Shown piece after piece: positions 3,946-32,806 of a DNA stretch of 32,900 nt. The notes beneath the pieces were generated by a model. That model did no database searches. It worked only from the letters and a program-made list of their open reading frames with translations, and had not been told where the DNA came from. Position 1 is the stretch's first letter; each line of letters opens with the position of its first letter. The translations under genes and the position numbers were made by a program. This DNA is from Cyanobacteria bacterium RM1_2_2 (GTDB lineage: Bacteria > Cyanobacteriota > Cyanobacteriia > Elainellales > Elainellaceae). Location of the stretch: contig JAAUQT010000040.1 of assembly GCA_012033495.1 (NCBI GenBank), positions 1 to 32,900 on the forward strand, in the 5' to 3' direction.

Positions 3946-3987
3946 TTTGATTGATCTCTCTGATAGATAATTTTTTGTGGATCAAAT

Positions 3988-4205: not shown

Positions 4206-4307
4206 AATCTTGACAGGCAATGCTTGATGGGACTCCTAAAACAATATGGAGTCCTATGCTCGATCAATTACCTGTAATTGAGAGTGTTGGTAGCCAATGC
4301 ACTGAGT

Positions 4308-4511: not shown

Positions 4512-4562
4512 AGCCGAGTCCTTACTAACGACAGGAAATAAAACCATCGGGAACAGGAACAA

Positions 4563-5935: not shown

Positions 5936-7896
5936 ATGTCAATGAGTGTATCGCCTTACGGTTCCTGGAAATCTCCGATCACATCTGATCTGATTGTGGC
6001 AGGCAGCATCCGGCTGGGTGAAATCCGTCTGGATGGTCAGGATATCTACTGGAGCGAAGGGCGACCTACCGAAGGCGGACGCAGCGTGGTTGTCCGGTAT
6101 GACGAAGCCAAATCAACAGACGTTACTCCGTCTGCTCCCTACAACGTTCGGACTCGCGTTCACGAATATGGTGGCGGCTCATACATTGTTGCAGATCGGA
6201 TTGTATATTTCTCTAACTTTGTCGATCAACGGCTTTATCGTCAGCCCGTCGGCAGCGAGCCAGAACCAATCACACCCGCCGCCCATTTTCGGTATGCGGA
6301 TGCCGTGATCGATCGACAGCGCCACCGTTTGATCTGCGTCCGGGAGGAGCACCTCTCAGAAGAGCAGGAGCCAGTGAACGCCATTGTTGCTGTAGAAACT
6401 GCTGTAGAAACTGCTGTAGAAACTGCACCTGCGGTTTCAGAAGGGGGGCAACTGCTGGTATCGGGAAGTGACTTTTACGCCTCGCCTCGCCTCAGCCCCG
6501 ACGGATCACAACTGTGCTGGCTCAGTTGGAATCATCCGAATATGCCTTGGGATGGCACAGAGCTATGGGTGGCAGAAGTTCGAGCGGACGGCACTTTAGG
6601 AGAGGCACAAAACATCGCTGGAGGACAGACAGAATCCGTGTTTCAGCCGGAGTGGTCGCCCGATGGCGTGCTCTATTTTGTCAGTGACCGCACGAACTGG
6701 TGGAACTTATATCGCTGGCAGGGTGGGCAAGTTGAGCCAGTTTGCCCCAAAGCAGCCGAGTTTGGCTTGCCGCAGTGGGTGTTTGATATGACGACCTACG
6801 GCTTTGAATCGTCTGAAAGTTTGATTTGCACCTACGTTGAAAATGGCGTTCAGCATTTAGCCCGCTTGAATCCGCAATCGTTGGAACTGAGCGAAATTGC
6901 CACTCCCTTTTCGGCGATTGGCGGCTTAAAAGTTGCCTCCGGCTTTGCGGTGTTTATTGGCGGATCAGCAATTTGTCCGAGTGCGATTGTGCGACTCAAT
7001 TTGCAGACGGGACGAGTGGAAGAATTGCGTCAGTCGAGTACGTTAGCCATTGATCCAGGATACATTTCTGCTCCTGAAGCGATCGAGTTTCCCACCGAAA
7101 ATGGCTTGACTGCCTATGCCTTTTACTACGCTCCCAAAAACCAGGATTACACGGCTCCAAGCGGTGAACAGCCGCCTCTGTTGGTCAAAAGTCACGGTGG
7201 CCCCACTGCCTCTACGTCTGCGTCTTTCAACCCTAGCATTCAGTATTGGACAAGTCGCGGCATCGCTGTTTTAGATGTCAACTATGGCGGCAGTACGGGA
7301 TATGGACGAGCTTACCGAGAACGCCTGAAGAGACATTGGGGAATCGTTGATGTAGATGATTGCGTGAACGGAGCAAAGTATTTAGTCAATCAAGGTTTGG
7401 CAGATCCCAATCGGCTTTGTATCGACGGCGGCAGTGCGGGTGGATATACGACGTTGGCGGCTCTCATATTCCGCGATGTATTTAAAGCAGGCGCGAGCTA
7501 CTACGGCGTGAGTGATTTAGAAGCGCTGGTTCGAGATACGCACAAGTTTGAGTCCAGATATCTTGATGGACTGATTGGAAAATACCCTGAAGAAATTGAA
7601 ATTTATCAACAGCGTTCGCCGATCGAATTTGTCGATCAACTGGACTGTCCGCTGATCTTTTTCAAGGGGATGAAGATAAAATCGTGCCGCCTAACCAAGC
7701 GGAGATGATGGTGGAAGTGCTGAGAAAAAAAGGCTTGCCCGTCGCCTATGTCTTGTTTGAGGGTGAACAGCATGGGTTCCGCAAAGCCGAAAACATTAAG
7801 CGGGCGTTGGATGGCGAACTTTATTTCTATGCTCGCGTGTTTGGGTTTGAATTAGCCGATGCGGTTGAGCCAGTTCCGATCGAGAATTTAGGCTAA
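5936..7896 (+). pseudogene. S9 family peptidase (prolyl oligopeptidase type), frameshifted
   Basis: The gene encodes a ~650-aa serine peptidase of the acylaminoacyl/dipeptidyl-peptidase group: an N-terminal beta-propeller (about residues 1-370) and a C-terminal alpha/beta-hydrolase domain. The nucleophile is in GGSAGG (Ser about residue 500, codon 7433-7435). The frame breaks near 7660-7670. In the first frame the protein ends [14 protein letters not shown] at 7708. One frame back, the sequence reads [17 protein letters not shown] and runs to 7896, including the His motif EQHGF. One missing base in the T5-C-AA-G4 stretch explains it, and the lesion falls a few bases before the catalytic Asp of the EDKIVPP motif. 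A 12-base unit repeated three times (about 6390-6428) encodes AVETAVETAVET in a propeller loop. If the lesion is real, the first product lacks Asp and His and should be inactive. Confidence 0.88.
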
Positions 7897-7961
7897 ATCT
7901 GTCCAGGAGATGGCTAGCTGTTGTAGATTTAGATTGATCTCTACATTTGCCGATTTTTTCC

Positions 7962-8813
7962 ATGCCTGCTGCGGTTTGTCTCCAAAATGTCCACAAAGTC
8001 TACAATAACGTTTCGGTTGTAGATGATCTGTCGCTCAGAATTGAACCCGGAGAGATTTTCGGGCTGCTTGGTCCCAACGGAGCCGGAAAGTCTACCACCA
8101 TTCGGATGGTGACGACGCTGACCAAACCTACCCAGGGCGACATTGTGGTAGCAGGCTATGATGTGCTGCGCCAGCCGTTTGGGGTTAAAAAGCAAATTGG
8201 CGTAGTCTTGCAGCAAACTAGCGTAGACCTGGATCTCACCGTCTGGGAAAACATGGAGTTTCACGCTCGAATGCACCATATTCCCAATCCGCGACGGCAG
8301 CAAGAAATTAATCGCTGGCTCGAATATGTGGAACTCACCGAGCGCCGCAATGATCTGGTCAAAACTTTGTCGGGTGGGATGAAGCGACGGTTACAAATCG
8401 CTAGAGCCTTGCTGCATCAACCACAAATTCTGTTTCTCGACGAACCGACGGTAGGACTTGATCCGCAAACGCGCCGCCGCCTCTGGGAAATTATCAAAGG
8501 CTTAAACCAACAGGGCATGACGATTTTGCTCACTACCCACTATATGGAAGAAGTTGAGTACCTGTGCGACCGCATCGGCATTATGGACAGCGGCAAATTG
8601 ATTGAACTCGGCACGCTAGAAGAACTGCGGCAGCGACGCGGAGCGGGACTGGTGATGAAGCAAGAAAGCGAGCGCTGGGATTATAAATTTTTCCCGACGT
8701 TGGAAGATGCCCGCTTGTATCTTGAGCACCAACCTGACAAAACGGGTATGATGGTGCGTCCATCTAACCTCGAAGATATTTTTGTGGAGCTAACAGGGCG
8801 GAATCTAGACTAA
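7962..8813 (+). CDS. ABC transporter ATP-binding protein, DrrA/multidrug type
   Basis: A 283-aa ATPase of the CcmA/DrrA class that powers ABC-2 exporters at the inner face of the membrane. It has Walker A GPNGAGKST, signature LSGGM, Walker B LFLDEPTVGLDP and the switch His in LTTHYMEEVEYL, followed by the C-terminal extension typical of the DrrA group (LEDIFVELTGRNLD). I choose the ATG at 7962; the frame also opens at TTG 7947. The ABC-2 permease normally encoded next to such genes is absent: the next gene is a DinB protein. The partner must be elsewhere or the operon has been split. Confidence 0.9.
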   Translation: MPAAVCLQNVHKVYNNVSVVDDLSLRIEPGEIFGLLGPNGAGKSTTIRMVTTLTKPTQGDIVVAGYDVLRQPFGVKKQIGVVLQQTSVDLDLTVWENMEFHARMHHIPNPRRQQEINRWLEYVELTERRNDLVKTLSGGMKRRLQIARALLHQPQILFLDEPTVGLDPQTRRRLWEIIKGLNQQGMTILLTTHYMEEVEYLCDRIGIMDSGKLIELGTLEELRQRRGAGLVMKQESERWDYKFFPTLEDARLYLEHQPDKTGMMVRPSNLEDIFVELTGRNLD

Positions 8814-8875
8814 TTGAAACCAGAAATCTCGGCGTTGCAGACTGGCAGCATTTATTCCAAAGCAGATGAAAGCAG

Positions 8876-9376
8876 ATGATCGATCCCATCTACTGTGAAA
8901 CTATGGCATCCTATAACCAATGGATGAACCAGAATCTCTATCAAATCTGTGCAGAGATTCCCGATTCCACTCGCCGTGAAGACCAAGGCGCTTTCTTTCG
9001 CTCTATTCATGGCACGCTGAACCATCTACTCATCGGCGATCGGCTCTGGTTGGGGCGATTTACGCAACAGCCTTTTGTGGCCAGGCTGGATCAAGAACTC
9101 TACAGTGATTTTGCCGAACTGTGGCAGCAACGTCAGCAGACGGATCAAATCCTTCTCGATTGGGCTAAAGATTTATCCTCTGAGTGGCTAAGTCAACCTT
9201 TCACTTACACCAGCGTTTCGGGTAACAGAACCGCAACCCGCCCTGCTTGGCTGCTCGTCACCCATCTGTTTAATCACCAAACTCATCATCGCGGACAGCT
9301 AACGACACTGCTGAGTCAGCTAGGATACGATCCAGGGGTGACTGATTTACCTTGGATCCCTAACCTAAGTCTCTAG
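8876..9376 (+). CDS. DinB family protein
   Basis: A 166-aa four-helix-bundle protein of the DinB/YfiT metalloenzyme superfamily. These proteins bind a divalent metal through three histidines; many act as thiol-dependent S-transferases, and a damage-inducible role is known only for some. Visible here are the N-terminal YNQWMNQNLY helix, the first His in IHGTLNHLLIGDRLWL, and the paired His in HLFNHQTHHRGQLTTLL. Length is normal for the family. The start at 8876 follows a short direct repeat (agcagatga twice). The 3' end overlaps the convergent Ap4A phosphorylase-like gene by 12 bp. The substrate cannot be told from sequence. Confidence 0.85.
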   Translation: MIDPIYCETMASYNQWMNQNLYQICAEIPDSTRREDQGAFFRSIHGTLNHLLIGDRLWLGRFTQQPFVARLDQELYSDFAELWQQRQQTDQILLDWAKDLSSEWLSQPFTYTSVSGNRTATRPAWLLVTHLFNHQTHHRGQLTTLLSQLGYDPGVTDLPWIPNLSL

Positions 9377-10330
9377 CAAATCGTTTCTAGCAACTGCCAC
9401 ATTGCTGAGCAATTGAAAAGGGCTAATTGCTTTCAGGCGATCGAACTGTGTCTGATCGCGGACAAACAGCGTGCCTGCAAAGCCTAGCGAGTTTACTGAA
9501 ATTGACTCAAATTGCTCCTGCGTTCGCGGCACAATTAACAGCCACTCGCGGGTGATCAGCAGGTTGTAGGCTCCTTTAAGTTCATTGGTATTTTCGTTGG
9601 CAGTATTTTCGTTGGCATTGTACAAATGGAGATCTGCCAACAGTGTGTAATAGGCTGCTAGCGTGTTCTGGGCTGCTTGTTGCGGAGTCAGGGCTGCGTG
9701 CCAATTGAGGCGGATAAGGGCATGTTGGAACGGCAAAACTGGGCTGACTCCAATTCCGCCTTGCCATGTTGCAGTCGTGAAAGCTGCCTCAATTGGAACT
9801 TTTGTCCCTGTTGGCACAAGTGGCAGCGGCAGAAGTTGCAAATGCTTGTGGGGTTGGCTGGCTCCCGCCTGCTTGCCAGAGTTATAGAAACCTAGCCCAT
9901 CGACTTGATTGAGGCAAATCCACAGCGCTTCTAAATCTGCTAGGGTCAACAAATCTTCTTGGGCTTCATAGGCACGAGTGATGATCAACAAGTGATGATC
10001 AACAACATTATATTTGTTCAGCAAGCAAACATGAGTCGGAGACAGATCCGCCACAAACAAGTCCCGATCGTAGGGCAGAAACGGATTAAAGGGTTTACTA
10101 TTTGAGCTAACTTGCTGTTTTTTATCCGCCGCTTCTTTGCGAGCAATATTGGTCAAAATTCTCACCAGAAACCGAATACCGCCTTGCTCAATCCACTCAG
10201 ATTCGGTTGGAATCGGCTGTAGTGCGCCACAGGCAAGCGCTTGTTGTGTGCGGGCGGTTGCTAAATCCCACAGTTCTCCGGGGAGGGGCACAACTGGGTT
10301 AGCTTCTGTCATTTCTGTGGTTTCACCCAT
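9365..10330 (-). CDS. ATP adenylyltransferase (Ap4A phosphorylase) family protein
   Basis: A 321-aa protein of the HIT-related ATP adenylyltransferase family, which phosphorolyses diadenosine tetraphosphate to ATP and ADP. The active-site motif is QPHKHLQLLPL, with H161, H163 and Q165 in the HxHxQ pattern. An N-terminal part (residues 1-110, including NPFLPYDRDLFV) and the C-terminal ATP_transf-like part (LLITREWLLIVPR, NSLGFAGTLFV) are both present, so the protein is full length. A short in-frame duplication gives NENTANENTNEL in a loop near residue 250. The start may be the ATG at 10330 or the one six codons later. It stands alone, convergent with the DinB gene. Confidence 0.88.
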   Translation of the reverse strand: MGETTEMTEANPVVPLPGELWDLATARTQQALACGALQPIPTESEWIEQGGIRFLVRILTNIARKEAADKKQQVSSNSKPFNPFLPYDRDLFVADLSPTHVCLLNKYNVVDHHLLIITRAYEAQEDLLTLADLEALWICLNQVDGLGFYNSGKQAGASQPHKHLQLLPLPLVPTGTKVPIEAAFTTATWQGGIGVSPVLPFQHALIRLNWHAALTPQQAAQNTLAAYYTLLADLHLYNANENTANENTNELKGAYNLLITREWLLIVPRTQEQFESISVNSLGFAGTLFVRDQTQFDRLKAISPFQLLSNVAVARNDLLET

Positions 10331-12812: not shown

Positions 12813-12830
12813 ACAGGCAGCTAAAAAAGG

Positions 12831-13258
12831 GAAGAGGCGGACATAAGCCGGGTTCTGTTCTTCTGATGCTGCCATTTAGACGATCACCAGAAGGGCAGTT
12901 ATCTATCTGGGATGCCTGTCACCAGACACCTCTAGCGGATTTCGCAGAATGGGTTGCCCACACCCTGCCCGGAGCCGGAAAAAGATCAACCATGACTCCT
13001 ACAACCTTGCTCCCAACCGGGGTTTACCGAGCCAATGCCTCACGACATTGCTGGTGCGCTCTTACCGCACCCTTGCACCCTTACCTGTGTATTTGCGGCT
13101 CAGACCCAAACACCATCGGCGGTATGTTTCTGTGGCACTCTCCTCACGGTCGCCCGCACTAGGCGTTACCTAGCAAGTTCGATCTTTTGGGAGCCCGGAC
13201 TTTCCTCAGACTTAGCCAGCGAACTGACCAATCTGCAACCGCCTGCGCCTCCTCTTCC
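12831..13258 (-). ncRNA. rnpB: RNase P RNA
   Basis: Read on the minus strand, this is the catalytic RNA of RNase P, which matures tRNA 5' ends. The 5' part has the conserved GAGGAAAGTCCGGGCTCCC (CR-I). The middle has AGGGTGCAAGGGTGCGGTAAGAGCGCACC. The 3' part has the CR-V sequence CAGAACCCGGCTTATG. The outer ends pair: GAAGAGGAGGCG at the 5' end with CGCCTCTTC at the 3' end (helix P1). The length of about 428 nt fits cyanobacterial type A RNAs. The exact ends are estimated from P1. Open frames in this region are chance. Confidence 0.95.
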
Positions 13259-17923: not shown

Positions 17924-20900
17924 CTAATTGGGTAATGGCAAATAGGGTCGATTACTAAAATCTGGTAAGGCGACCGGATTTTTCTCTAGCTGCTCCAAAA
18001 TGACCTGAATCGCTTTTTCTAGTTGCGGATCTTTGCCCGCTGCCCAGTCTTGGGGCGTGATTTCGACTTCGAGGTCAGGATCGGTGCCGTAGTTTTCTAC
18101 GTTCCAGCCCACATCTTTAAACCAAAAGGAATATTCAGGCTGAGTTACCTTGCCCTGATCGACGAGGGAATGTCGCGGATGGATGCCGATGACGCCGCCC
18201 CAAGTTCGTTTGCCGATTAGGGTTCCCAGGTTCATCAGCTTGAAACAGTGGCTGAAAATGTCGCCGTCGGAACCTGCATGTTCGTTGGTGATGGCGACGA
18301 TCGGGCCGGCGATCGAATCGGAGGGGTAGGGATCGGGTTTGCCCCAACGGGAAATGTCGTAGCCGATGCGCTGCCGAGCGAGCTTTTCGAGGATGAGTTG
18401 CGAGACATGCCCGCCACCGTTGTAGCGCACGTCTACAATTAGCCCGTCTTTGTGAACTTCGGCAAAATAGTAGCGGTGGAATTCGGCATAGCCATGAGCG
18501 GTCATATCGGGAACATGGACATAGCCGATTCTGCCTTGTGTGGCTGCCTGAACGATGCGGTGATTGCGTTCCACCCACTCTCGATAGCGCAGGTAGGTTT
18601 CGCCCCAGAGGGTTTTGACGGTGACGGTGCGGGTTTCGCTGCGGGTTTCGCTGGAATTGCGTCCTGCAAAGGTGAGGGCAACTTCACATTTAGACTGGTT
18701 GACGAGCAACTCTTGTGGTGCGCAGTGGCGGTTGACTCGCTGCCCGCCGATCGCCAGCAGCACATCACCCACTTGCACATTGGCTCCCAGTTGGCTGAGC
18801 GGCGAGGTTGATCTGTCCAGGAGTCGCCTTCAACGATATGCGTTACCCGATAAGCATCGGACTCAGCATCATACTGAAAGTCTGCGCCCAAAAAGCCCAT
18901 CCGATAGTCGGGTTCTTCGCGGTAATCGCCGCCACGTTCGTAAGCGTGGGAAGTGCCCAACTCGCCCTGCATCTCCCAAACCAGATCGGAAAATTCGGAG
19001 CGGACGGCAACCCGATCCAACAAGGGACGATAGCGCTCATAAACCCGCTGCCAGTCAACGCCAGACATATCAGGCGTCCAGAATTGCTCTTGCTGCAACC
19101 GCCATACTTCTTTGAACATTTGCTGCCACTCTTGCTCTGGATTCACCGACACCCGCACCCGCTTCAGATCAAGCCAGCCGCTTTTACGTCCCGGTTCATT
19201 TTCTTTGTTGCGATCCCGGTCTTGAGGGCTAATTCCACAAACGCGCAAACGGTTGCCAGAACGGTAAATCAGGGTTTTGTGATCTTTACCAACCCGGAAG
19301 TGAGAGACATCAGCAGCGATGCGCTCTTGCTTGTGTGCTTCAAAGTCGTACATCTCCAAGGAGGGTTTAGCGTCGGGTTTGCTGCTGCCGTTGCGACCTT
19401 CCAAACTGCCCTGCACCGGATAGGTGGTAAACAGCACTTTGCCTTCAACGCCCCAAATCTGCCTGTAGATGCCTTCAACAACTGGAAACCCCACAATGCG
19501 CTGCTGAATTTCGTCCAAATCGATTTTGATGGGTTCGATTTTGGGTTTTGCCGGCTTCTCAGACTTCCCAGCATCCACTGTTTCATCTGTAGATTCAAGA
19601 TCGGCGGCGTCTTCCGTTTTTTCTGCCTTGTCTGAGTCTTTCGGTTTCGCGCCGTTCAGGGGTTTGGGGAGAGGCACAAAGGGCGACAGCGTTTCTTTTT
19701 GCAGCGAAATTAGGAAAGGCCGCAGCGCTTTAGGGAAGCTGAGGTCGAAGTAAATGCGGTCGTAGACAGGGTTGAAGTCGCGGATAGACAAAAAGTAGAT
19801 GAACTTACCGCCCGGATCAAACATTGGCTGCGTATCGCGGAAGCGGGGCGGTGTGAGACAGTGGGTGCTGCCATCCTCAATCCGGCAAAGCTTAATCGAA
19901 AAAGTGAACTGAGTTTCGGCACAGCCATACGTCACCCATGCACCATCGGGCGACCAGCAAAAGCCTTGAATTCGATTGAAGTCGCTGCGATCCAAAATAC
20001 GGCTTTCCTTCGTTGCCAAATCGACCCAGATTAGTTCTTGTCGATGATTGGTCAAAATCACCTGATCGGCAGTGGGTGACACTTCCAGGTTAAGCACTCG
20101 CCCCAGATCGAGTCCGGCCAGCGGTTCTGGCGGCATGGCAAAATCGGGGCTGAGAATTTCTAGTGTTTCGGCTCCGCTGCGGTCACAAATGCTAACGAGG
20201 CGCTGTTTGTCGTTCAGCCAGCGAGTGAGGCGGTAGCGTCCGGCATCAGGTACGCCAAGCTGAAACACGGCTCCTTCCCAGTTGCCAAAGCAGAAACTTT
20301 TGCCGCGTGTGGTGATGGCGACCGAATGCCCTTCTGGGTGCAGATCATAGTAGTTGAGGAATTCGTCGGCATCCACAAACTTGCGCTGACGTTGCACCTT
20401 GGGGCTGTGAAACTGCACGTCAATTAAGTGATTTGATTCAGTAGCAGGATCAAACCAAAACAAATCGGCTCCTGCATGGTAAACAATCTGCGTTCCATCT
20501 GTAGAGGCATTGCGAGCGTAGTAGTCGCTTTGCTGAGTGTGGCGCTGCAAATCTTCGCCGCTGGGCATACAGGAATAGAGATGACCGATGCCTTCGTGAT
20601 CGGAGAGGAAGTAAATTCGCTCTCCCACCCACATCGGCGAGGCTAAATTGCCGTTCAGATCGATCAGCTTCCTGAAACTGCCCTCACCTGTTGGATCAAC
20701 CCACAGCACGCCTACCCTGCCGCCGCGATACCGTTTCCAGCGAGCCGGATCGGCCGTATTGCGCCCCAACACCACGCCGCCATTTGCTCCAAACGAAACG
20801 CTGTGGGCTAAGCCGTAGGGCAATTGTTCGGGCAGTCCGCCTGCTGGATTGATCGTGTAAAGATGAGGCATTCCATGGAAGGGTTGTCCGGTACTGCTGC

Positions 20901-21210
20901 GAAAGACAATCGCCTTACCGTCTCGACTCCAGCCTTCCACATGCGCCGATCCTACAAACGTCAGCCGCTTCGCCGCGCCGCCCAGTGCAGGCATTTCATA
21001 CACTTCCGAGTGACCTTCTTCACGCCCCACGAAGGCTAGCTGCGTTCCATCGGGCGATAAAAACGGACGACGCACCATGCCGAGATTGGCAGTTAAGCGA
21101 ATGGCGACGCCACCTTGAACCGATACACTCCAGAGATCATCTTCGCAAACAAACACCACTCGATCGCCACTGATGGTGGGATAGCGGTAGTAACCAGGTT
21201 GTTGACTCAT
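17924..21210 (-). pseudogene. Tricorn protease homologue (S41), frameshifted
   Basis: The gene encodes a ~1095-aa cytoplasmic protease of the tricorn type: N-terminal six- and seven-bladed beta-propellers (to about residue 680), then the core with C1, PDZ and S41 parts. The frame from 21210 carries real sequence to about residue 800, including the SH pair in LGTSHAYE (S754, H755; tricorn S745, H746). It then runs out of frame to 18502. The rest is in the frame ending at 17924: SPLSQLGANVQVGDVLLAI (PDZ), nucleophile Ser in AGSDGD, and Glu in VENYGTDPD. Ser to Glu spacing is 58 residues, as in tricorn S965/E1023. One missing base near 18803-18814 explains the break. Known role of the family: degradation of peptides, probably released by larger proteases. 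If real, the lesion removes the catalytic Ser and Glu. Confidence 0.88.
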
Positions 21211-23093: not shown

Positions 23094-23495
23094 CTATGCA
23101 GGAATCAACACAGTATCAATAATGTGAATGACACCATTGTCAGCAGCCACATCAGGGGTTGTAACAGTAGAGTTATTCACCTTCACGCCTTTGGAAGCAT
23201 CAATTGCCACCTCTGAGCCTTCAACAGTTTTAGCCGACTTCAGCTTCACTACATCCGCCGCCATGACCTTACCGGATACGACGTGGTAGGTCAGGATTTT
23301 CTTGAGTTGAGGAATGTCCTTGAGTAGTCCATCTACCGTGCCTTCTGGTAATTTGGCGAATGCCTCATCTGTAGGGGCAAAGACCGTGAATGGGCCTTTA
23401 CCTTTGAGTGTATCAACCAAACCAGCGGCTTTGACAGCAGCAACCAGGGTGCTGAAAGAACCAGCATTAACGGCAGTATCAACAATGTCAGCCAT
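23094..23495 (-). CDS. Fasciclin (FAS1) domain protein
   Basis: A 133-aa single-domain FAS1 protein. It shows the two conserved blocks: [15 protein letters not shown] (H1, about residues 36-50) and the C-terminal [13 protein letters not shown] (H2), with the YH motif in ILTYHVVSG between them. There is no signal peptide, unlike many secreted fasciclins, so it may stay in the cytoplasm. Such stand-alone domains are common in cyanobacteria and are often called secreted or surface proteins, with little functional proof. It has its own terminator. It is the last gene of the light-stress run before repeat DNA and is separated from ftsH by family B copy 2. Confidence 0.9.
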
Positions 23496-24023: not shown

Positions 24024-25907
24024 TCAATCTTTCAAATAAATGTCTCGGACGACTGTTGAAGCCTGAACCTGACTCAGCAACTGATGCAGTTTCTCACCTT
24101 CAATCGCTTCAGTTTCCAAAAGCTGCATCGTGATAGTTTCCAACAGGTCGCGGTTATGTCTGATCGTCTCCAATGCCTGCTGGTGAGCGGTTTCGACGAT
24201 CTCTTTTACCTCACGGTCGATTGCCTGTGCGGTTTCCTCACTCATAGAACGGCGGGCATTGGGCATCCCATCGTTAAGGAACATCGGTCTTGCGCCCTGC
24301 TGATATGCCAGCGGGCCCAAGACTTTGCTCATGCCAAAGGTTGTCACCATTTGTTCTGCCAGGTCAGTTGCCCGCTGCAAATCATTAGATGCGCCTGTGG
24401 TAATGCTGTTGAATACAATCTCCTCTGCCGATCGCCCGCCCAGCAACGTAGCAATCTGCCCCCGCAGTTCCGCTTCATCCATTAAGAACCGATCTTCTGT
24501 CGGCAATTGCAGCGTATACCCCAGGGCTGCCATACCACGGGAAACAATAGAAATCTTTTCGACCCGACCACTCCCCGGCATCAGCGACCCGACCAGCGCA
24601 TGACCGACTTCATGATAGGCAACAATTTTCTTTTCCTTGTCGTTGAGGACTCGGCTTTTCTTTTCCAACCCTGCTACAACTCGCTCGATAGCCTCCGCAA
24701 AGTCTGTCTGTGCCACCGCCTGCCGTCCGTTGCGAGCTGCTAACAAAGCTGCCTCATTCACCAGATTTGCCAAATCTGCTCCAGCAAAACCAGGGGTGCG
24801 GGTAGCGATTGCCCTCAAATCCACATCTTCACCCAGCTTTACTTTCTGCGCATGGATGTTAAGAATGGCTTCTCGTCCTGATAGGGCAGGACGATCGACT
24901 AAGACTTGCCGATCAAACCGACCAGGGCGCAGCAGGGCAGGATCGAGAATTTCGGGGCGATTGGTGGCAGCCAGCACAATGACCGTAGCTGCTTCTGCCG
25001 AAAATCCATCCATTTCAGACAGCAATTGGTTGAGCGTCTGTTCTCGCTCATCGTTGCCGCCGTAGAAACCATTGCTGCTGCGCGACTTGCCGATCGCGTC
25101 TAGTTCGTCGATGAATACAATACAAGGAGCCTGCTTTTTGGCTTGCTCAAACAAATCCCGCACTCTGGAAGATCCCACACCGACAAACATTTCCACAAAC
25201 TCTGAGCCAGAAATACTGAAAAAGGGAACTCCAGCTTCTCCGGCAACTGCTTTCGCCAGCAGGGTCTTACCCGTCCCCGGTGGCCCCACCAGCAGCACAC
25301 CTTTGGGAATTCGCGCTCCAATCTGGGTATAACGTCCTGGCGTTTTGAGGAAATCCACAATCTCAACTAACTCAGCCTTTGCTTCCTCCACTCCCGCTAC
25401 ATCTGCAAACGTTATCTTAGCGGCTTCTCCCTCAACGTATACTTTGGCTTTACTTTTACCAATCGAGAGCATTCCTTGAGCACCACCACCGCCACGACGG
25501 GCAAAAAACTGCCAGATGCCTACAAAGATCAGCGGCGGAATCACCCAGCCCAGCACGTTACCAATCCAGCCGTTTTTAGGGGGTGGGGCAGCGGCAAACT
25601 CAACGCCTTTCTCTTCTAGTAAATTAGGCAAACTTAAATCAAAAATAGGGGTAGTTGAGAAGACTTGCCCAGCCTCTTCGTCACCCGTTTTGAGTTGAAA
25701 GCGAATTTGATTTTGTCCCACTTGCACCCGCGAAACTTCACCTTCTTGTACCTGATGGATAAACAAGCTGTAGGGCACTCCGGGAATCTGAGGACCTGTC
25801 ACCAGCGGCAATATAAAATTAGCGGCTAAGAATAAGGCTCCGATGATGAGAAAAATATTGTTGAAAAGACGAAAACGGGGTGGATTGGGTTGATCTTTAA
25901 TTGGCAT
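24024..25907 (-). CDS. ftsH: ATP-dependent zinc metalloprotease FtsH
   Basis: A 627-aa thylakoid or plasma-membrane AAA protease. In cyanobacteria, FtsH complexes degrade damaged photosystem II D1 and other membrane proteins. Two N-terminal membrane segments (about residues 15-35 and 114-135) flank a periplasmic/lumenal loop. AAA motifs: Walker A GPPGTGKT (208-215), Walker [13 protein letters not shown] (262-273), and second region of homology [21 protein letters not shown]. Protease motif: HEVGH (H432, E433, H436). Length is typical. Cyanobacteria carry about four FtsH genes and I cannot tell which one this is; the clustering with hli, nblA and a rhodopsin suggests a stress-related copy. Confidence 0.96.
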
Positions 25908-26024
25908 GATAGTTACTCATCAATAGGGAATTTTCTTGCAACTTAAATGAACCTTGTTTGATTTCTGGAGTGATTTGATGAACTACGACATTAAAATCAA
26001 CAATTCATCCATCAGTTGAGCAAA

Positions 26025-26309
26025 TCAATAACTCTCACCGAGGTGAAGTGCGGGTTCATAATCGAGGCAATTGATCGCTGCTTCAGTCAGAGCTTTGCAG
26101 GGATGAATCGTACATTTCAGGTGATATTCCCCTGTAAAAAAGGTGCAGCCACTACACGGAACTTGATGCAACCGTTGCAGATTGCCCCAACCTTGCCGCA
26201 AATCCTTCCAGAACGACCATAAGAAACTCAGTAGAATCAGCCACATACAAATGGCGAAAATAGATCTGACAATAGATGGAACAATCTGAAGTAAAGTTGT
26301 GATCAGCAT
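26025..26309 (-). CDS. Small cysteine-motif membrane protein, conserved in cyanobacteria
   Basis: A 94-aa protein. It has one N-terminal hydrophobic segment (about residues 8-33, IVPSIVRSIFAICMWLILLSF), then an amphipathic stretch and the cysteine block VPCSGCTFFTGEYHLKCTIHP followed by CKALTEAAINCLDYEP. Five cysteines in this arrangement suggest a metal or disulfide site on one side of the membrane. I recall similar short proteins annotated as hypothetical in cyanobacteria, but no function. It lies 117 bp upstream of ftsH on the same strand, so the two may form one transcript. Confidence 0.7.
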   Translation of the reverse strand: MLITTLLQIVPSIVRSIFAICMWLILLSFLWSFWKDLRQGWGNLQRLHQVPCSGCTFFTGEYHLKCTIHPCKALTEAAINCLDYEPALHLGESY

Positions 26310-26482
26310 GGTAGGATGACACCGAGAGTATTAAATCAAATGGATGCGATCACATTAATTTCGAGATCAGGAGATTAGTTTGGAGTTCTGTATGCAGAAT
26401 TCAGAAATTTCGATCTGAAGGTTGAACACTTCCCCTGTAGCTCAGAAGCAAGTTGGGTCAAGCTATCGGTTTCGTCGCTCAA

Positions 26483-26604
26483 GGAGATTTCTAGGAAAAA
26501 GTTGTTGCCACGTTGGGGCAGGTTTGGACTCAGTCTCGCGTCGCCCAGATGATTGATCTGCAAAACCTGCCCGTACCGGGGTAGAGGGTTTCCCAGAAAT
26601 CTCC
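26483..26604. repeat. Family A palindromic repeat, copy b (complete)
   Basis: The only complete copy here, 122 bp. Terminal arms are ggagatttctagg (26483) and cccagaaatctcc (26592-26604), near-perfect inverted complements. Internal arms are ggcaggttt and aaacctgcc. The spacing and the lack of coding suggest a MITE-like or REP-like element. It lies 10 bp downstream of the 312-aa gene stop and splits the light-stress run into two parts. Confidence 0.9.
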
Positions 26605-26614
26605 CAACAACGGC

Positions 26615-27553
26615 TTAAGCGGGCCGTAATTCTGTTGCTCCGGCAGATTGAGGCTGCTCCAAGCTTGAACCGTACAAATCAGCAAAGCGCTCAAACAGTT
26701 GCATGGTTTCGGGATAAGAACCTTTACCGACTTTGCCTGAGCGGTGAATCTTACCTTCAGACAGTTTGCGGAGGTAGGGCAGATCCTCCAGCAGAGTTAA
26801 GCCCGATGCTAGATGGAGAAGGACTTGCAGTAGCGGCTTTGGAAACACCACATTACAGTAGATGTCGATGAACAACTTGTGGTTGTTTTGACTAAGTGGC
26901 AAAACGTTGAATATCACAGTAATGTTTTTGCCATTGTAGATTGGAATACTCAGTTCAATGGTGTAAGGAGTATGCAGAATCAACTCAACTTCAACAGCGG
27001 GCTGCCTCCAAATTCTGAGGAGATTGAGCGGCGAATTTAAGATGGTTTGAAACCGAATTGCTCCACCAATCGTGGTTGTTTCAAATTGGCTCACTTTGAC
27101 AATTTTTAAGCCGTTGAGACTAAGGCTGTGAATCGATTCCAGATGCTTTAGATTCAACAAGTGATAGATCTGACAAAGATAGGGAATCGGCAAAACATAC
27201 TCCTGGCTAATCAGGTGGTATTTTGCTAATTGCAGCATTCTGATCTCAGCTTTGTGCAGATAGGCTTCGTGTGGAGGTTCAATGGATTCCAATTTGTAAT
27301 ATTTGAGCGTGCTGATATCCGCAGCACTCAAGCTCTCGAACTCTAGACTAACCTCCGGTTTTAGATAAACCCAGCCAGCCAGTAATAGAGAAACTGCGAA
27401 TAAGCGGAATAACTCAATCGCAGACAAATCACCATCTGCAAGAAACTCAAAGCTTTGATTCGTGACGTTAAACATCCCGTAGAGGATGCCAAAATGCCAA
27501 ACGTTGTTGCGGAGTTTCGTTAAAGAGAAAGTTTTTGTAGACGTAATGTTCAC
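26615..27553 (-). CDS. Hypothetical protein with one or two membrane segments
   Basis: A 312-aa protein I do not recognise. The GTG at 27553 is preceded by ggagg 11 bases upstream. Residues about 45-60 (IELFRLFAVSLLLAGWVYL) are the only clear hydrophobic segment. The rest is a soluble-looking domain rich in Leu and Ile with repeated hydrophobic strands (IRFQTILNSPLNLLRIWRQ, VEVELILHTPYTIELSIPIY). The C-terminus is polar (SSLEQPQSAGATELRPA). It is 155 bp downstream of ycf35 on the same strand. The role is unknown; context suggests a link with the light-stress genes. Confidence 0.6.
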   Translation of the reverse strand: MNITSTKTFSLTKLRNNVWHFGILYGMFNVTNQSFEFLADGDLSAIELFRLFAVSLLLAGWVYLKPEVSLEFESLSAADISTLKYYKLESIEPPHEAYLHKAEIRMLQLAKYHLISQEYVLPIPYLCQIYHLLNLKHLESIHSLSLNGLKIVKVSQFETTTIGGAIRFQTILNSPLNLLRIWRQPAVEVELILHTPYTIELSIPIYNGKNITVIFNVLPLSQNNHKLFIDIYCNVVFPKPLLQVLLHLASGLTLLEDLPYLRKLSEGKIHRSGKVGKGSYPETMQLFERFADLYGSSLEQPQSAGATELRPA

Positions 27554-27708
27554 GACTTCACAGTCCTCCCTATTGGATGTATCGGTAATCGTGGGAGGGG
27601 TGGATGGTTTGTACGAGCTTTAGCTGTGAGCCATGTGAGCGATTCGGCAACAGATTTGACAGCTTGCAACGCATCGATTGCCAAATCCTGATTGAACAAG
27701 CAAACGCA

Positions 27709-28062
27709 CTACGGTTGCATGACCAGCTTGACCTTGGCATTCTGTAAACCAGGGCGTTTCACTGCTGCTAGTGTTTGATTCACTGCATAGTTCTGATTGA
27801 TCGAGGTGATCAATCCAGCCATATCGTGCTTTCTAGCCACGCCCCACAGGTCAGCAATTAGATCAAACGAGCCATCTGCATTCCGAGACCAGCCTAAGTC
27901 GTAGCCTCCTTCAAGCACGGCAACAATGTCAGCTCGCACTCGCTGGCTATTAGAACCCCGTACTTCCGCATCGGTCTGAACCACAATTCCCAGGTTGCGG
28001 AGAGAGGATTTTAGAATTTCGACATCTGTCAGTTTGCTACGCAGCGTATTGAAGTGAGACAT
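27709..28062 (-). CDS. ycf35: Ycf35 family protein (DUF1257)
   Basis: A 117-aa protein. The start is the ATG at 28062 (MSHFNTLRSKLTDVEIL), with an aagga ribosome site upstream. The longer frame to 28191 only adds unlikely residues. It matches Ycf35/DUF1257, known from red-algal plastids and cyanobacteria: central GGYDLGWSRNADGSFDLIADLWG and C-terminal LITSINQNYAVNQTLA. No function has been assigned to the family with certainty. It is normally a single conserved gene in cyanobacteria; this copy, next to the rhodopsin, could be an extra one. Confidence 0.88.
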   Translation of the reverse strand: MSHFNTLRSKLTDVEILKSSLRNLGIVVQTDAEVRGSNSQRVRADIVAVLEGGYDLGWSRNADGSFDLIADLWGVARKHDMAGLITSINQNYAVNQTLAAVKRPGLQNAKVKLVMQP

Positions 28063-28218
28063 CTGGGTTTCCTTGACATTAATGTTTGCGATTGTTGGCA
28101 AATTTGTGATTGTAGACACGGGAGGATTTGCAGCACTCCACTGAAAGCAATGGTTCAGACTCAATCGTTCAAACTCAACCACCTCTTCCAACCCAATGCT
28201 ACGAATCCTCCCATCCAG

Positions 28219-29118
28219 TTAGGACTGAGCAGGCGTGGAAATTACGTCCAGTTCAGTAACATGGTCTACCTCAACCGGCAAGCCGCTGTTCTCGCCATCA
28301 AATTTCGTTTTTGTTAGCGCAATCGCGAATACTAACAATCCAAAAATCGGTTTTGCTAGCACATCTGCGATCGTGTAACCAAGCTGAACACCCACCGTTG
28401 CTGATGTCCCTACAATGCCTAACATCGGTAGAAGGTAGGCAATTGGGTAAACGCCCCAAGAGAGCAACAGCAGCAGGCGCATGTTGCGAACTAAGGTCTG
28501 CACAGGGGCAGGTTGGCGAACCAGCGATTTGGATAGCTCAACCCACAGCACATAGAGAATGTAGGCAAAGGGAATCGTGCTGACCGTACCCCAGATGATC
28601 CGCGTTGTGAGGTTAGAAGAAATCTCACCCGGATAACCTGTAGCAATCATCACAATTGAAGCAACCGCCAGTTTGATCAGCAAAGGTCTTGCTTCTTTCA
28701 CAGGCAACGCTAACACTGCCACTGCCTCAACCAACAGTAACGGCACAGTCAATAGCCAATCGACATAGCGATAGGCATCATTAAACGGTGCGCCCGTCAG
28801 CGTATATGCGCCATTCTGCAAGCTATATGCGGCTTCCCAACTGTTGAAAATTCGGAAGTAATGGTAGCCTGCAATGCTGACGACTAAGGCTGAAACCAAC
28901 AGGGCAATCCGGTATTTTTGTCCAACCTGAGCGCGAGCGTTGAAGAAAAAGAGGGCTGACGCGAACATTGCCGCGATCGCAAACGAGAAGGCGTTATAGA
29001 TCAAATTGAATTGGCTGGGTGTCAGCGATCGGGCTGTTGATAACCGATCTGCAATATCGCCTCGAACAAAAAGCGCTCCCAGAAGCGTGAAGTCAGGCGC
29101 TAAAGAAACTTCTATCAT
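28219..29118 (-). CDS. Light-driven proton-pump rhodopsin, xanthorhodopsin/Gloeobacter-rhodopsin-like
   Basis: A 299-aa seven-helix microbial rhodopsin in the cell membrane that uses retinal to pump protons outward. Helix C reads YRYVDWLLTVPLLLVE. By bacteriorhodopsin numbering, D85 is D120, T89 is T124 and D96 is E131, so the motif is DTE. The helix-B His of proteorhodopsin-type pumps is H86 (GYHYFRIF). Helix G has DVLAKPIFG with D252 and retinal Lys K256. In helix E, TRIIWGTVSTIPFAYILYVL has Gly177 where bacteriorhodopsin has Trp138; this Gly opens the fenestration used by carotenoid antennae in xanthorhodopsin and Gloeobacter rhodopsin. PGE (163-165) is also present. A ribosome site cggag precedes ATG 29118. 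No retinal-forming gene (blh or dioxygenase) is in the window. A cyanorhodopsin affiliation is possible instead. Confidence 0.95.
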   Translation of the reverse strand: MIEVSLAPDFTLLGALFVRGDIADRLSTARSLTPSQFNLIYNAFSFAIAAMFASALFFFNARAQVGQKYRIALLVSALVVSIAGYHYFRIFNSWEAAYSLQNGAYTLTGAPFNDAYRYVDWLLTVPLLLVEAVAVLALPVKEARPLLIKLAVASIVMIATGYPGEISSNLTTRIIWGTVSTIPFAYILYVLWVELSKSLVRQPAPVQTLVRNMRLLLLLSWGVYPIAYLLPMLGIVGTSATVGVQLGYTIADVLAKPIFGLLVFAIALTKTKFDGENSGLPVEVDHVTELDVISTPAQS

Positions 29119-29171
29119 TGATAATGTCTCCGTTACGGTAGTTGTGAATCAATGAACTGAAATTGAGATCA

Positions 29172-29573
29172 CTAATTCGTGAATCCTTGACGGCTCATGC
29201 AGCTTTTCAACTCAATCTCTGCTTCACTGAGCTTGGGATTAGACTTAAGATTAAAAGCTCGCTCAAGCTGATCGTCACCCATTTCACTCAAAGCTCGTTT
29301 GAGGTTCGGCTGACTGAGTTGCTTGGGCAGGCAAGCCATCAGAGCATTCATGCGGGCGCTCTCAATGGAGATAGAATCAACAGAAGTAGAATCAACCCGT
29401 GATGCGATCTCTGCGGTCATTGCGGCTACATCAGGCATCGCCAGCGCTGAAGTGAGGGGAAGAACTGGTAGCCAGATTAAACCAATTAGTAAACTGGTCA
29501 AGAGCGTGCGCTTGAGCAAACTCAGAACTCGGTTGCAAGATGGACTGTACTTAATCGCTAATCTAGTCGTCAT
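29172..29573 (-). CDS. Exported or membrane-anchored protein, unknown
   Basis: A 133-aa protein. Residues 18-45 contain a long signal-like hydrophobic segment (LLKRTLLTSLLIGLIWLPVL) ending in ALA before MPDVAAMTAEI, consistent with export to the periplasm or lumen. The mature part is helical and has two cysteines (MNALMACLPKQ and ELKSCMSRQG) and a repeated KRALSEMGDDQLERAF region. I do not recognise the family. A ribosome site agga lies 5 bases before ATG 29573. It is 53 bp upstream of the rhodopsin gene and 65 bp downstream of the HLIP gene, all on the minus strand, so co-transcription is likely. Confidence 0.65.
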   Translation of the reverse strand: MTTRLAIKYSPSCNRVLSLLKRTLLTSLLIGLIWLPVLPLTSALAMPDVAAMTAEIASRVDSTSVDSISIESARMNALMACLPKQLSQPNLKRALSEMGDDQLERAFNLKSNPKLSEAEIELKSCMSRQGFTN

Positions 29574-29638
29574 AACAGTCCTGAGTGAAGTTGAATTTTG
29601 CTTGAGAACGAGAATGAAATAAACTTGCGGTGGCTGAT

Positions 29639-29833
29639 CTAGATCAGGTTCCAGAAGTGAAGAACACCTTGACCGGAAAACAACTCCACCAGGAGAGCAG
29701 ACACAAATCCGATCATGGCCAGACGACCATTCCAGTTTTCAGCTTGAGGCGTGAATCCCCACACCCAACCGTTGCGGGTCTCTTGTAGAGAGGTTTTGCC
29801 AACGCTAGGCGTTCCTTTTGTAGAACTTGTCAT
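29639..29833 (-). CDS. High-light-inducible protein (HLIP/SCP), chlorophyll-binding
   Basis: A 64-aa single-helix member of the chlorophyll a/b-binding family. HLIPs dissipate excess energy and help chlorophyll reuse during photosystem II assembly in the thylakoid. The core [20 protein letters not shown] carries the ExxNGRxAMIGF motif with chlorophyll-ligating Glu and Asn, followed by [14 protein letters not shown]. The polar N-terminus (about 30 aa) with GWVWGFTPQ is typical. The start at 29833 has ggag 7 bases upstream. It is between nblA and the exported-protein gene on the same strand. Such genes are induced by high light and nutrient stress. Confidence 0.93.
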
Positions 29834-29918
29834 GAGTTTGACTCCAAATTGTGTGATTATAAGAACTGGATGCAGTTATTAGAGAAGAATTGGCCAACCT
29901 TCTTAACTAGCAATCCTC

Positions 29919-30121
29919 TTAAAGAGAGGCAAAATCCACATCTAGTTTCCATTCGTGCTTCAGGAGATCTCGATACATGACTTCCCGAAGCATCATGAGT
30001 TTGTGTTGTTCAATCAGGAATTTTGCGCCTGTTCGAGAGACATTTGTTGAACCAGGTCGGCAAATGTTCTCAGGTTGAAGTCCTGCTCAAGCGTAAGTTC
30101 GATCGCTTGATCCTTGTCCAT
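29919..30121 (-). pseudogene. nblA: NblA-family phycobilisome degradation protein, frameshifted
   Basis: NblA is a small adaptor that brings phycobilisomes to Clp protease under nutrient starvation. From ATG 30121 the sequence reads MDKDQAIELTLEQDFNLRTF and VQQMSLEQAQ, the family N-terminal half. A strong ribosome site gggagg lies 5 bases upstream, which is why I reject the longer frame beginning at 30211. After that, a stop follows at 30014. In the next frame, the sequence continues FLIEQHKLMMLREVMYRD and LLKHEWKLD to a stop at 29919, which is the normal C-terminal half. One missing A in the run at 30021-30024 restores a 67-aa product (QAQKFLIEQ). As read, the product stops after 35 residues and lacks the half that binds phycobiliprotein. 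Confidence 0.85.
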
Positions 30122-30594
30122 CGCTGCCTCCCATAACCCAATTAGGGTAAAAATTGTGAGCCCGATAATACCGCTAGGTGCTTTAATTGCCTCTAAGACA
30201 ATCCGGCTCATTGTATTGACGCTTGGCTAACAGCAGGGGCTATTAACGGAGTTGGTATAAATCAAGAGAATGCTCTCGTTGAGAAACCTAGACAATATGC
30301 TCCGACGTTCGTGTAGATGCAAATCTGCCGTTGCTTGGAACCGGAATGGTGTCTCTGTTTGTTACGATATGCAAACTAGTATAACAATTATTTACATGGC
30401 TGACCGGATTTTAGAAATCGTTGCTTATTCTCTTTTTTTAGTTATGAGAATGAAATCGAACGCATTACTCTTAATGGGATAGCAACGAGATGTTTGATTT
30501 CTAGGGGCAGTGATCGATTCCAGCTAAAACCCTGTTTGACCATTCATGGATGACGCGCCCTAGGGTTATTTGGTTGATCATTATTTGGTTAATC
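30122..30594. other. Non-coding stretch upstream of nblA
   Basis: The 473 bases contain no supported gene. The frame 30270-30482 has no recognisable features. Near 30212-30240 the minus strand has tacaat, a possible -10 element for nblA, without a convincing -35. No NtcA-type gta-n8-tac site could be picked with confidence. Confidence 0.4.
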
Positions 30595-30637: not shown

Positions 30638-30709
30638 CAAATCTATTTAGCGATTGCGACTCATTGGAAAAGCACACCATCAAATCGCGTCAGCACAATT
30701 TATTTTGCA

Positions 30710-30832
30710 TCACCGAATAGCCCAGTGATGCTTCCATCATGCCTTCTAGGATCTTTCTTTTGCTGCTTAGTTCCATCAGAAGGTGCTTTTCGGTTTTTTG
30801 GCTTCTTTGTTGCCTTTTTGCTGCTTTGACAT
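30710..30832 (-). pseudogene. Small Lys-rich protein gene, frameshifted
   Basis: From ATG 30832 the frame reads MSKQQKGNKEAKKPK and then stops after 18 codons. The next frame continues APSDGTKQQKKDPRRHDGS and ITGLFGDAK to the stop at 30710. The start resembles a family of short Lys-rich bacterial proteins beginning MxKQxKxNKEAKKPK, of unknown function (from memory). The break is at the A run 30787-30790; one base fewer or two more would restore a ~40-aa protein. A strong terminator follows 73 bp downstream, which supports it being a real transcribed gene. Confidence 0.55.
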
Positions 30833-32260: not shown

Positions 32261-32518
32261 TTAGAGGTGCTGCAAATCAAGATCTTCGAGGACGGGCATG
32301 GCTTGATAGCAATGATTACAGCGCCAATAAAGCTGACCTAAATAAACATGGCGCAGGAGAGCATTAGAGCAACATGGGCAGGTATGTCTACTGCTCATCA
32401 ATTGAGCCGCAAGACTGATTGAGCCAGAGTTCCGCGTTTTTGTGGAAACTAGCTGATCTGACAATGTGATTGGCGATGTGATTGGCGATGTGATTGGATT
32501 AGTCGTTAGAGCACTCAC
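32261..32518 (-). CDS. Small zinc-ribbon protein
   Basis: An 85-aa protein, or about 45 aa if the ATG at 32398 is used. The C-terminal half has two Cys pairs, HTCPCCSNALLRHVYLGQLYWRCNHCYQAMP, the form of a rubredoxin-like or zinc-ribbon knuckle. I recall similar short proteins in cyanobacteria with no known function. The first start is GTG 32518. The N-terminal ITSPITSPIT repeat comes from a DNA duplication (gcgatgtgattg) and is not conserved-looking, so the shorter form is possible. Confidence 0.6.
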   Translation of the reverse strand: MSALTTNPITSPITSPITLSDQLVSTKTRNSGSISLAAQLMSSRHTCPCCSNALLRHVYLGQLYWRCNHCYQAMPVLEDLDLQHL

Positions 32519-32806
32519 TTTAAAGCCCGGAATTAATCATATTTCTACCCACCCCCACTCTGAGCCACTCCCGTTCGACTTCCTGAGTGAATAGATTGAT
32601 TATGTTACAAATATTTACAATATGCAATAATATGCTTTGAAAATTAATAAAAATTTCATGCTGCAATTGGCTCCAAGCTGTTTGCGGCTATGCAACCATC
32701 AAAAAAACCTGGTCTCAGGTCTCGCGCCAACCCGGTCAACAGAGGAAGATGTGAATTTGCTAGGAGTTAAGTTAATAGAGCGCATTCACTGAGGAATGGG
32801 AATTAA
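32519..32806. other. Non-coding stretch with possible terminator
   Basis: No gene is visible in this AT-rich stretch. At 32701-32720, acctg and caggt form a 5-bp stem with a 4-base loop, and on the minus strand a run of seven T follows, so it may terminate a transcript entering from the right. A partial family C end (gaggaatgggaatt, about 32791) abuts family A copy c. Confidence 0.5.

What the first reader, a model, noticed from the sequence alone, without database searches (positions are those of the whole stretch)
24024..30121. Candidate light-stress island: nblA, hli, exported protein, rhodopsin, ycf35, two unknowns, ftsH (fas1 beyond)
All nine genes lie on one strand with short gaps (53-156 bp in the nblA-to-312-aa part). 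NblA dismantles phycobilisomes, HLIPs dissipate chlorophyll energy, and FtsH clears damaged photosystems. A rhodopsin in the middle suggests an organised switch from antenna-based photosynthesis to retinal phototrophy under light or nutrient stress. I know of no described unit of this composition.
Basis: inference. Interest (0 to 1): 0.8.

Follow-up and report, generated by a model that had tools for sequence, protein, structure and literature searches.

The report
Cyanobacterial light-stress island carrying a rhodopsin
A cyanobacterium keeps a light-driven proton pump of the retinal type in one run of genes with those that strip down its light antenna and protect its photosystems, and much of that run recurs with and without the pump in other cyanobacteria, which hints that some of them switch on a back-up light engine when photosynthesis is in trouble.

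Summary
In detail: all nine genes lie where stated, on the minus strand. They belong to a mosaic island with a near-fixed order: pentapeptide, small ORF, nblA, hli, exported protein, (rhodanese), (rhodopsin), DUF1257 paralogue, p312, p94, ftsH, fas1. Parts recur in several cyanobacterial families. 14 of 16 Gloeobacter-type rhodopsin loci have another island gene within 1.5 kb on the same strand; 0 of 26 other rhodopsin places have nblA or hli within about 1.5 kb. The rhodopsin is optional: 13 loci with two or more island genes lack it, among them a same-genus relative with a 95%-identical ftsH.

A conserved block before nblA carries repeats like HLR1, the site of the regulator RpaB. 14 of 18 upstream regions match HLR1 with at most two mismatches (0.37 expected).

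Corrections: nblA, the only copy in the assembly, is split over two frames, perhaps an assembly error since three other window genes look broken too; 'ycf35' is a divergent DUF1257 paralogue; the island reaches beyond the stated ends.

Best reading: an NblS-RpaB-type stress island into which a proton-pumping rhodopsin has been placed. Co-expression and the 'switch' remain untested.

The parts
32261..32518 (-). small zinc-ribbon-like protein (85 aa), possible outer member; a perfect HLR1 match lies upstream of it at 32604-32621
   Evidence: ORF; weak Zn_ribbon hit under its cut-off; HLR1; homologue in L041
31544..32071 (-). SRPBCC/polyketide-cyclase-like protein, upstream flank
   Evidence: Pfam; pieces also upstream of nblA in L134, L204, L212
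30872..31354 (-). pentapeptide-repeat protein, upstream flank
   Evidence: Pfam; homologues upstream of nblA in L204 and L212
30703..30832 (-). conserved small ORF (about 45 aa), split over two frames here
   Evidence: homologues in L204, L212, L205, L036, L134 and, on the other strand, L209
30350..30405 (-). conserved promoter-like block with HLR1-like direct repeats (best HLR1 match 30358-30375, 2 mismatches)
   Evidence: not listed by the sigma-70 scan
29918..30121 (-). nblA, phycobilisome-degradation adaptor; halves in two frames
29639..29833 (-). hli (high-light-inducible protein, 64 aa)
29172..29573 (-). 133-aa protein with hydrophobic N-terminus (export by eye), two Cys conserved in four aligned sequences
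28219..29118 (-). Gloeobacter-rhodopsin/xanthorhodopsin-type proton pump
27709..28062 (-). DUF1257 protein, divergent paralogue of Ycf35
   Evidence: tblastn
26615..27553 (-). p312, unknown protein with hydrophobic N-terminus
26025..26309 (-). p94, unknown small Cys-containing protein
24024..25907 (-). FtsH protease
23094..23495 (-). fasciclin-domain protein
   Evidence: Pfam; also near island genes in L211 and L233

Best explanation
It is a conserved, modular light- and nutrient-stress island. Shown: the gene set, order and strand recur, and a conserved block with HLR1-like repeats sits in front of nblA. Inferred: the NblS-RpaB system represses a promoter there in low light and releases it in high light or starvation. 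NblA then removes phycobilisomes, the HLIP shields chlorophyll during photosystem II repair, and FtsH trims HLIPs and damaged proteins. In some lineages a Gloeobacter-type rhodopsin (Asp120/Thr124/Glu131, Lys256, carotenoid-slot Gly177) stands downstream of the exported gene, so that it would be read with the stress genes. It would then pump protons with green light that the lost antenna no longer absorbs, keeping up the proton-motive force without the electron-transport chain. The rhodopsin is thus an optional auxiliary energy module of a stress operon, not a separate mode of life.
For: Conserved neighbourhood. Of 16 GR-type rhodopsin loci, 14 have another island gene on the same strand within 1.5 kb; the misses are L130 and L039. 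Of 26 other rhodopsin places, 0 have nblA or hli within about 1.5 kb and 1 has a p94 hit. Of 14 strong exported-protein places outside the window (E up to 1.3e-27), 11 have nblA and/or hli just upstream and 5 have rhodopsin downstream. HLR1 within 2 mismatches in 14 of 18 nblA upstream regions against 0.37 expected. Between 23094 and 31354 this is the only such match in the window. GR-type residues; best solved match GR 6nwd. Two RPE65-family oxygenases and phycobiliprotein genes in the genome. Literature: RpaB represses nblA and HLIP genes through HLR1 near the start site (PMC11633204, passages); FtsH4 regulates Hlip levels and affects Hik33/RpaB (PMC11287208, passages).
Against: No expression data. 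The window's own HLR1 has 2 mismatches; such matches are expected 0.63 times by chance in the window, so its weight comes only from conservation among related loci. In L034 and L231 the HLR1 match lies outside the conserved block, and in L032, L033 and L207 it is on the minus strand at the block's upstream edge. The sigma-70 scan did not list the block as a promoter, found fewer promoter-like sites than shuffles (6 against 9.7), and listed a weak one (9 of 12) directly before the rhodopsin, 29148-29121, its end 3 bp from the ATG. nblA is frame-broken here. Gaps of 305 and 117 bp before p94 and ftsH allow separate promoters. RpaB and NblS genes were not looked up. Eight GR-relatives in a sister clade carry no island in order, and in the GR clade L130 has none. 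On the island tree the rhodopsin label changes 4 times, with 67 of 500 shuffles as low, so rhodopsin may come and go without a tight bond. ftsH4 of Synechocystis is reported not to appear to be an RpaB target (PMC11287208), and whether this FtsH is of that type was not tested.
Confidence: 0.55

Rival explanations
1. The island is a real stress locus, but the rhodopsin is a passenger: a mobile or often-lost gene that settled in a tolerant spot and is used all the time under its own signals.
For: Rhodopsin presence is patchy on the island tree. Rhodopsins of the sister clade live elsewhere. Broken or cut copies exist (L133, L134, L137). A weak promoter-like site lies directly before the window's rhodopsin.
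Against: The same slot and strand recur across families; 54-68 bp separate the matched ends of exported gene and rhodopsin in the window, L036, L037, L133 and L134; an hli lies upstream of the rhodopsin even in the genome whose size fits Gloeobacter violaceus.
Confidence: 0.25
2. A true switch: the organism gives up antenna-based photosynthesis and lives by retinal phototrophy under stress.
For: Antenna removal, photoprotection and a proton pump in one unit; possible retinal supply.
Against: Phycobiliprotein genes are retained (13 matches); 13 island loci stand without a rhodopsin; a rhodopsin yields no reducing power or carbon (general knowledge).
Confidence: 0.15
3. Chance clustering of unrelated genes, or a mis-joined contig.
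For: The contig seems to have at least four frame breaks, so the assembly is imperfect.
Against: Same order of shared genes in named assemblies such as Shackletoniella antarctica, RM1_406_9 and SM1_4_3.
Confidence: 0.02

Closest known systems
Gloeobacter rhodopsin (gll0198, PDB 6nwd) and xanthorhodopsins
   Same: best PDB match; 80% identity to the copy in the genome whose size fits G. violaceus (size recalled); proton-pump residues and carotenoid-slot glycine kept
   Different: described as localized alone in the genome (PMC4210194, abstract and passages), whereas here it sits in a stress island; the genome that fits G. violaceus also has an hli 0.3 kb upstream on the same strand
NblS(Hik33)-RpaB high-light regulon (nblA, hli, HLR1 sites)
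   Same: nblA and hli genes, HLR1-like site upstream
   Different: in the passages seen, targets are treated gene by gene; here they are linked in one island with ftsH, unknown genes and sometimes rhodopsin
FtsH4 of Synechocystis
   Same: an FtsH near hli; FtsH4 is reported to control Hlips (PMC11287208, passages)
   Different: FtsH type not tested here; no report seen of ftsH in such an island
Anabaena sensory rhodopsin with transducer
   Same: a cyanobacterial rhodopsin in a gene cluster
   Different: clustered with a 14-kDa transducer gene (PMC4210194 abstract), a sensor rather than a pump (recalled)

Membership tests
Gloeobacter-rhodopsin / xanthorhodopsin proton pumps | microbial rhodopsin family with retinal lysine | tested here: met
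   Bac_rhodopsin E 2.6e-43; Lys256 in DVLAKPIF
Gloeobacter-rhodopsin / xanthorhodopsin proton pumps | Asp/Thr/Glu proton-pump motif in helix C | tested here: met
   D120, T124, E131, aligned to GR; motif meaning recalled
Gloeobacter-rhodopsin / xanthorhodopsin proton pumps | glycine that opens the carotenoid slot (Gly178 in GR) | tested here: met
   G177; role from PMC9151804 passages
Gloeobacter-rhodopsin / xanthorhodopsin proton pumps | light-driven proton pumping and carotenoid antenna | not testable with these tools
   needs expression
NblA | complete NblA domain in one frame | tested here: not met
   both halves present but in two frames; one open frame in most relatives, for example L032, L036, L204; in pieces or degraded in L035 and L034
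HLIP | single chlorophyll-binding helix motif | tested here: met
   [12 protein letters not shown] in the 64-aa protein (motif recalled); Pfam 20.8 bits, under the 22.3 cut-off
Ycf35 | orthologue of canonical Ycf35 rather than only DUF1257 | tested here: inconclusive
   three DUF1257 copies, the window one scores lowest; that the C154 copy is the canonical one is inferred
FtsH4 | FtsH4 subtype | not tested
   only the FtsH family is shown; no labelled references at hand
NblS-RpaB (HLR1) regulon | HLR1 site near the promoter | tested here: met
   2 mismatches in the window, at most 2 in 14 of 18 loci; no transcription start is known, and the sigma-70 scan did not list a promoter there
NblS-RpaB (HLR1) regulon | RpaB binding and high-light induction | not testable with these tools
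   needs binding and expression assays

The most novel reading that the evidence does not exclude
A modular stress island that couples active removal of the light antenna to switching on an electron-transport-independent retinal proton pump under one promoter: a built-in fallback light engine that is gained and lost as a cargo unit among cyanobacteria.
Probability: 0.35. Interest if true: 0.85.

Novelty: new variant of a known kind. Interest (0 to 1): 0.68.

Why it matters
Why oxygenic phototrophs carry proton-pumping rhodopsins is an open question. A conserved link to nblA, hli and ftsH behind an HLR1-like site gives a concrete answer that can be tested: the pump serves when chlorophyll photosynthesis is being turned down. 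It also names unknown proteins (exported 133-aa protein, p312, p94, DUF1257 paralogue) as new candidates in high-light or starvation acclimation.

Tried and rejected
Membrane-anchored NblA: the longer upstream frame looked like a hydrophobic extension, but most relatives start at the ATG equivalent to 30121, and the conserved part upstream reads as a leader rather than protein. Structure of p312 and of the exported protein: AlphaFold models from 3 and 4 sequences were useless (mean pLDDT 39.5 and 45.1), so no fold search was made. FtsH subtype: PDB searches gave only general FtsH. Plasmid origin: GR-like rhodopsin found on 2 plasmid records only, both Polymorphobacter at 49.8%. Phage origin of nblA: no match among phage records to the L032 protein. 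Rfam at gathering threshold: only RNase P RNA in the window. Terminators: the two found on the minus strand lie inside p94 and rhodopsin; 5 in all against 8.5 in shuffles. HLR1 in the 400 bp before hli, rhodopsin, DUF1257, p312 or ftsH of the window: none within 3 mismatches.
Full report
What is there. The window is one whole contig (C202) of a 5.54-Mb assembly in 335 contigs, 91.65% complete. The rhodopsin is of the Gloeobacter-rhodopsin (GR) type: best PDB match 6nwd, with D120, T124, E131, K256 and G177, the last at the place of GR Gly178, which is needed for carotenoid binding (PMC9151804, passages).

nblA. Only the first half of the NblA profile is in the frame at 30014-30211; the second half (29952-30023) is in another frame, and no other NblA match was found in the assembly. 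Three further genes of the window look broken: an S9 peptidase that ends early in its profile (5936-7708, 153 of 213 positions), a Tricorn-type protease in two frames around 18.5-18.8 kb, and a small conserved ORF at 30703-30832. An FtsH on contig C177 is also in two frames. I read this as an indel-prone assembly, so that nblA may well be intact in the organism; this is inference. In most other loci NblA is one open frame, for example L032, L036 and L204; in L035 it is in pieces and in L034 degraded.

Conservation. Searches with the rhodopsin, the exported protein and p312, followed by tblastn of the island proteins against chosen loci, show one mosaic. Examples: nblA-hli-rhodopsin-DUF1257-p312 in Shackletoniella antarctica (L032); nblA-hli-exported-rhodopsin in RM1_406_9 and SM1_4_3 (L036, L037, whose aligned rhodopsins are identical, so one lineage); exported-rhodanese-rhodopsin-DUF1257 fragment in PMM_0083 (L031); rhodopsin-p312-p94 in Chamaesiphon CAN_BIN30 (L038); rhodopsin-DUF1257-ftsH, with ftsH 93% identical to the window's, in D1_MAG_00067 (L047). 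Rhodopsin-less forms: nblA-hli-exported-rhodanese-ftsH (95% and 93% identical ftsH) in the same-genus genome G003 (L204) and in G303 (L212); nblA-DUF1257-p312-p94-ftsH in G021 and G020 (L229, L231). In all, 13 loci hold two or more island genes on one strand without a rhodopsin (L204, L206-L212, L224, L225, L228, L229, L231), some of them cut by contig ends. Departures from the order: L224 (rhodanese between nblA and hli), L039 (hli before nblA, 8 kb from the rhodopsin), L035 (rearranged, with a rhodopsin fragment), L034 (an extra nblA fragment at its end), L131 (rhodanese on the other strand), and the small ORF on the other strand in L209.

Counts. I treat 16 loci as GR-type: window, L031-L039, L047, L130, L131, L133, L134, L137. 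L133, L134 and L137 are broken or cut and were placed by identity only; the other 13 form a group with 93/89 support, short of the tree's own mark for firm branches. 14 of the 16 have another island gene, whole or broken, on the same strand within 1.5 kb; L130 and L039 do not. In the sister clade of 8 loci none has nblA, hli, exported, DUF1257, p312, p94, ftsH or fas1 on the same strand within 5 kb, while L041, L088 and L135 have hli and/or p312 on the opposite strand; several of these are cut by contig ends. Control: of 26 distant rhodopsin places (about 1.5 kb on each side, less at contig ends; some genomes count twice), 0 have nblA or hli, and 1 has a p94 hit. Exported protein: of 14 strong places outside the window (E up to 1.3e-27), 11 have nblA and/or hli just upstream (misses G032, G298, G031) and 5 have rhodopsin downstream (two of these broken or cut). 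Of 29 weaker places I fetched 11 with wide flanks (L213-L223) and none has another island gene; one of the other 18, in G124, is the broken copy beside the L034 rhodopsin. These loci share ancestry, and counts are not corrected for it.

Empty slot. The window aligns with G003 from hli into the exported gene and again from just before ftsH (25916 onwards, 83%), with nothing alignable to the rhodopsin-DUF1257-p312-p94 stretch between; in G003 a rhodanese gene fills the slot. On a small tree of nblA, hli and exported (16 rows, weakly supported) the rhodopsin label changes 4 times, and 67 of 500 shuffles are as low. It is patchy; gain and loss cannot be told apart.

Promoter. The 400 bp before nblA in 18 loci mostly contain a shared block of about 50 bp with a -10-like sequence such as TTATACT or TTATATT followed by 10-bp-spaced repeats such as TTTACATA. 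Against L212, 15 of the 17 other upstream regions beat all 50 of their own shuffles, two of them (L032, L229) only by one, and by eye L229 does not hold the block; L134 and L231 do not beat theirs. HLR1 (KTTACAWWNNKTTACAWW, as given in PMC11633204, passages) is matched within 2 mismatches in 14 of 18 (misses L036, L037, L134, L229), where 0.37 were expected from shuffles. In L034 and L231 that match lies outside the block; in L032, L033 and L207 it is on the minus strand at the block's upstream edge. In the window the match is 30358-30375 with 2 mismatches; such matches are expected 0.63 times in the whole window, so it carries weight only through conservation. The simple sigma-70 scan did not list a promoter in the block, found 6 sites in 8 kb against 9.7 in shuffles, and listed a weak one just before the rhodopsin (29148-29121), so near the ATG that it is doubtful. 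No HLR1 match within 3 mismatches occurs in the 400 bp before hli, rhodopsin, DUF1257, p312 or ftsH of the window. Of 11 rhodopsins tested that do not follow an nblA-led island (L039, L040, L041, L042, L045, L088, L130, L131, L132, L135, L137), one, L045, has a match within 2 mismatches in the 400 bp before it; L136 was not tested. The cited paper says that RpaB represses HLIP and nblA genes in low light by binding HLR1 near the transcription start.

Genome setting. The assembly has two RPE65-family oxygenases as possible retinal makers, other hli genes (four places, a fifth), three long FtsH matches counting the split one, three DUF1257 proteins of which the window's scores lowest, and 13 phycobiliprotein-family matches. 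The DUF1257 of contig C170 is 78% identical to the window's, that of C154 only 32%. Whether NblS and RpaB are present was not looked up.

Mechanism. The best reading is given above: a stress island under an NblS-RpaB-type promoter with an optional proton pump. Shown: composition, order, optional rhodopsin, conserved block. Inferred: RpaB control, co-transcription, the role of the pump, and that this FtsH acts on HLIPs as reported for FtsH4 (PMC11287208, passages).

Literature. Word searches in an open-licence library: Gloeobacter rhodopsin, cyanobacteria, NblA (20 of 241 listed); rhodopsin with high light-inducible and gene neighborhood (16 of 17); rhodopsin with nblA (23 of 23); xanthorhodopsin with cyanobacterial genera (20 of 147); nblA with ftsH, hli, DUF1257 or ycf35 (13 of 13); rhodopsin with phycobilisome, NblS or Hik33 (12 of 18). 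Among the listed titles and abstract starts I saw none that describes this unit; I opened only passages of PMC11633204, PMC11528372, PMC4210194, PMC11287208 and PMC9151804. The cyanorhodopsin-II paper (PMC11528372) has no use of 'neighbo' or 'operon'. PMC4210194 calls the GR gene localized alone. Most subscription papers are not held, so absence here is weak evidence.

Verdict. Real, conserved and, as far as these searches go, undescribed as a unit; built of known protein kinds; function untested.

Noticed in passing
L275 (G000:C214:20500-30043), 3317-9403: A second, short rhodopsin-like ORF (158 aa) lies about 1.5 kb upstream of a psbA-like gene (by eye) and four phycobiliprotein-family matches, which resembles a far-red photoacclimation cluster (resemblance recalled, not tested).
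   Followed up: partly
window 5936-7708, 17924-21210, 30703-30832: Apparent frame breaks in an S9 peptidase, a Tricorn-type protease and a small conserved ORF, as in nblA; they point to an indel-prone assembly.
   Followed up: partly
window 32604-32621 and 32261-32518: A perfect HLR1 match just upstream of a small zinc-ribbon-like gene; a homologue of that gene lies near hli and a p312 fragment in L041.
   Followed up: partly
L134 6958-7200 and L137 7562-8008: Two rhodopsin genes that have lost the middle of the protein (about residues 50-257 and 152-251) while both ends remain, in genomes of different families.
   Followed up: no
   Followed up: partly
L045 2105-4559: A Calothrix GR-relative is followed by an ORF that looks like a carotenoid oxygenase (by eye, not scanned), a possible retinal maker.
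   Followed up: no
L261 (G000:C319), 325-2240: A p94 paralogue and another hli lie about 1.6 kb apart in the same genome, outside the window.
   Followed up: no
L131 6572-7840 and 8455-8817: The genome whose length fits Gloeobacter violaceus (recalled) has an hli 0.3 kb upstream of its rhodopsin on the same strand, and a rhodanese of the island type on the other strand.
   Followed up: partly
window 12827-13254: RNase P RNA gene on the minus strand (Rfam RF00010).
   Followed up: yes
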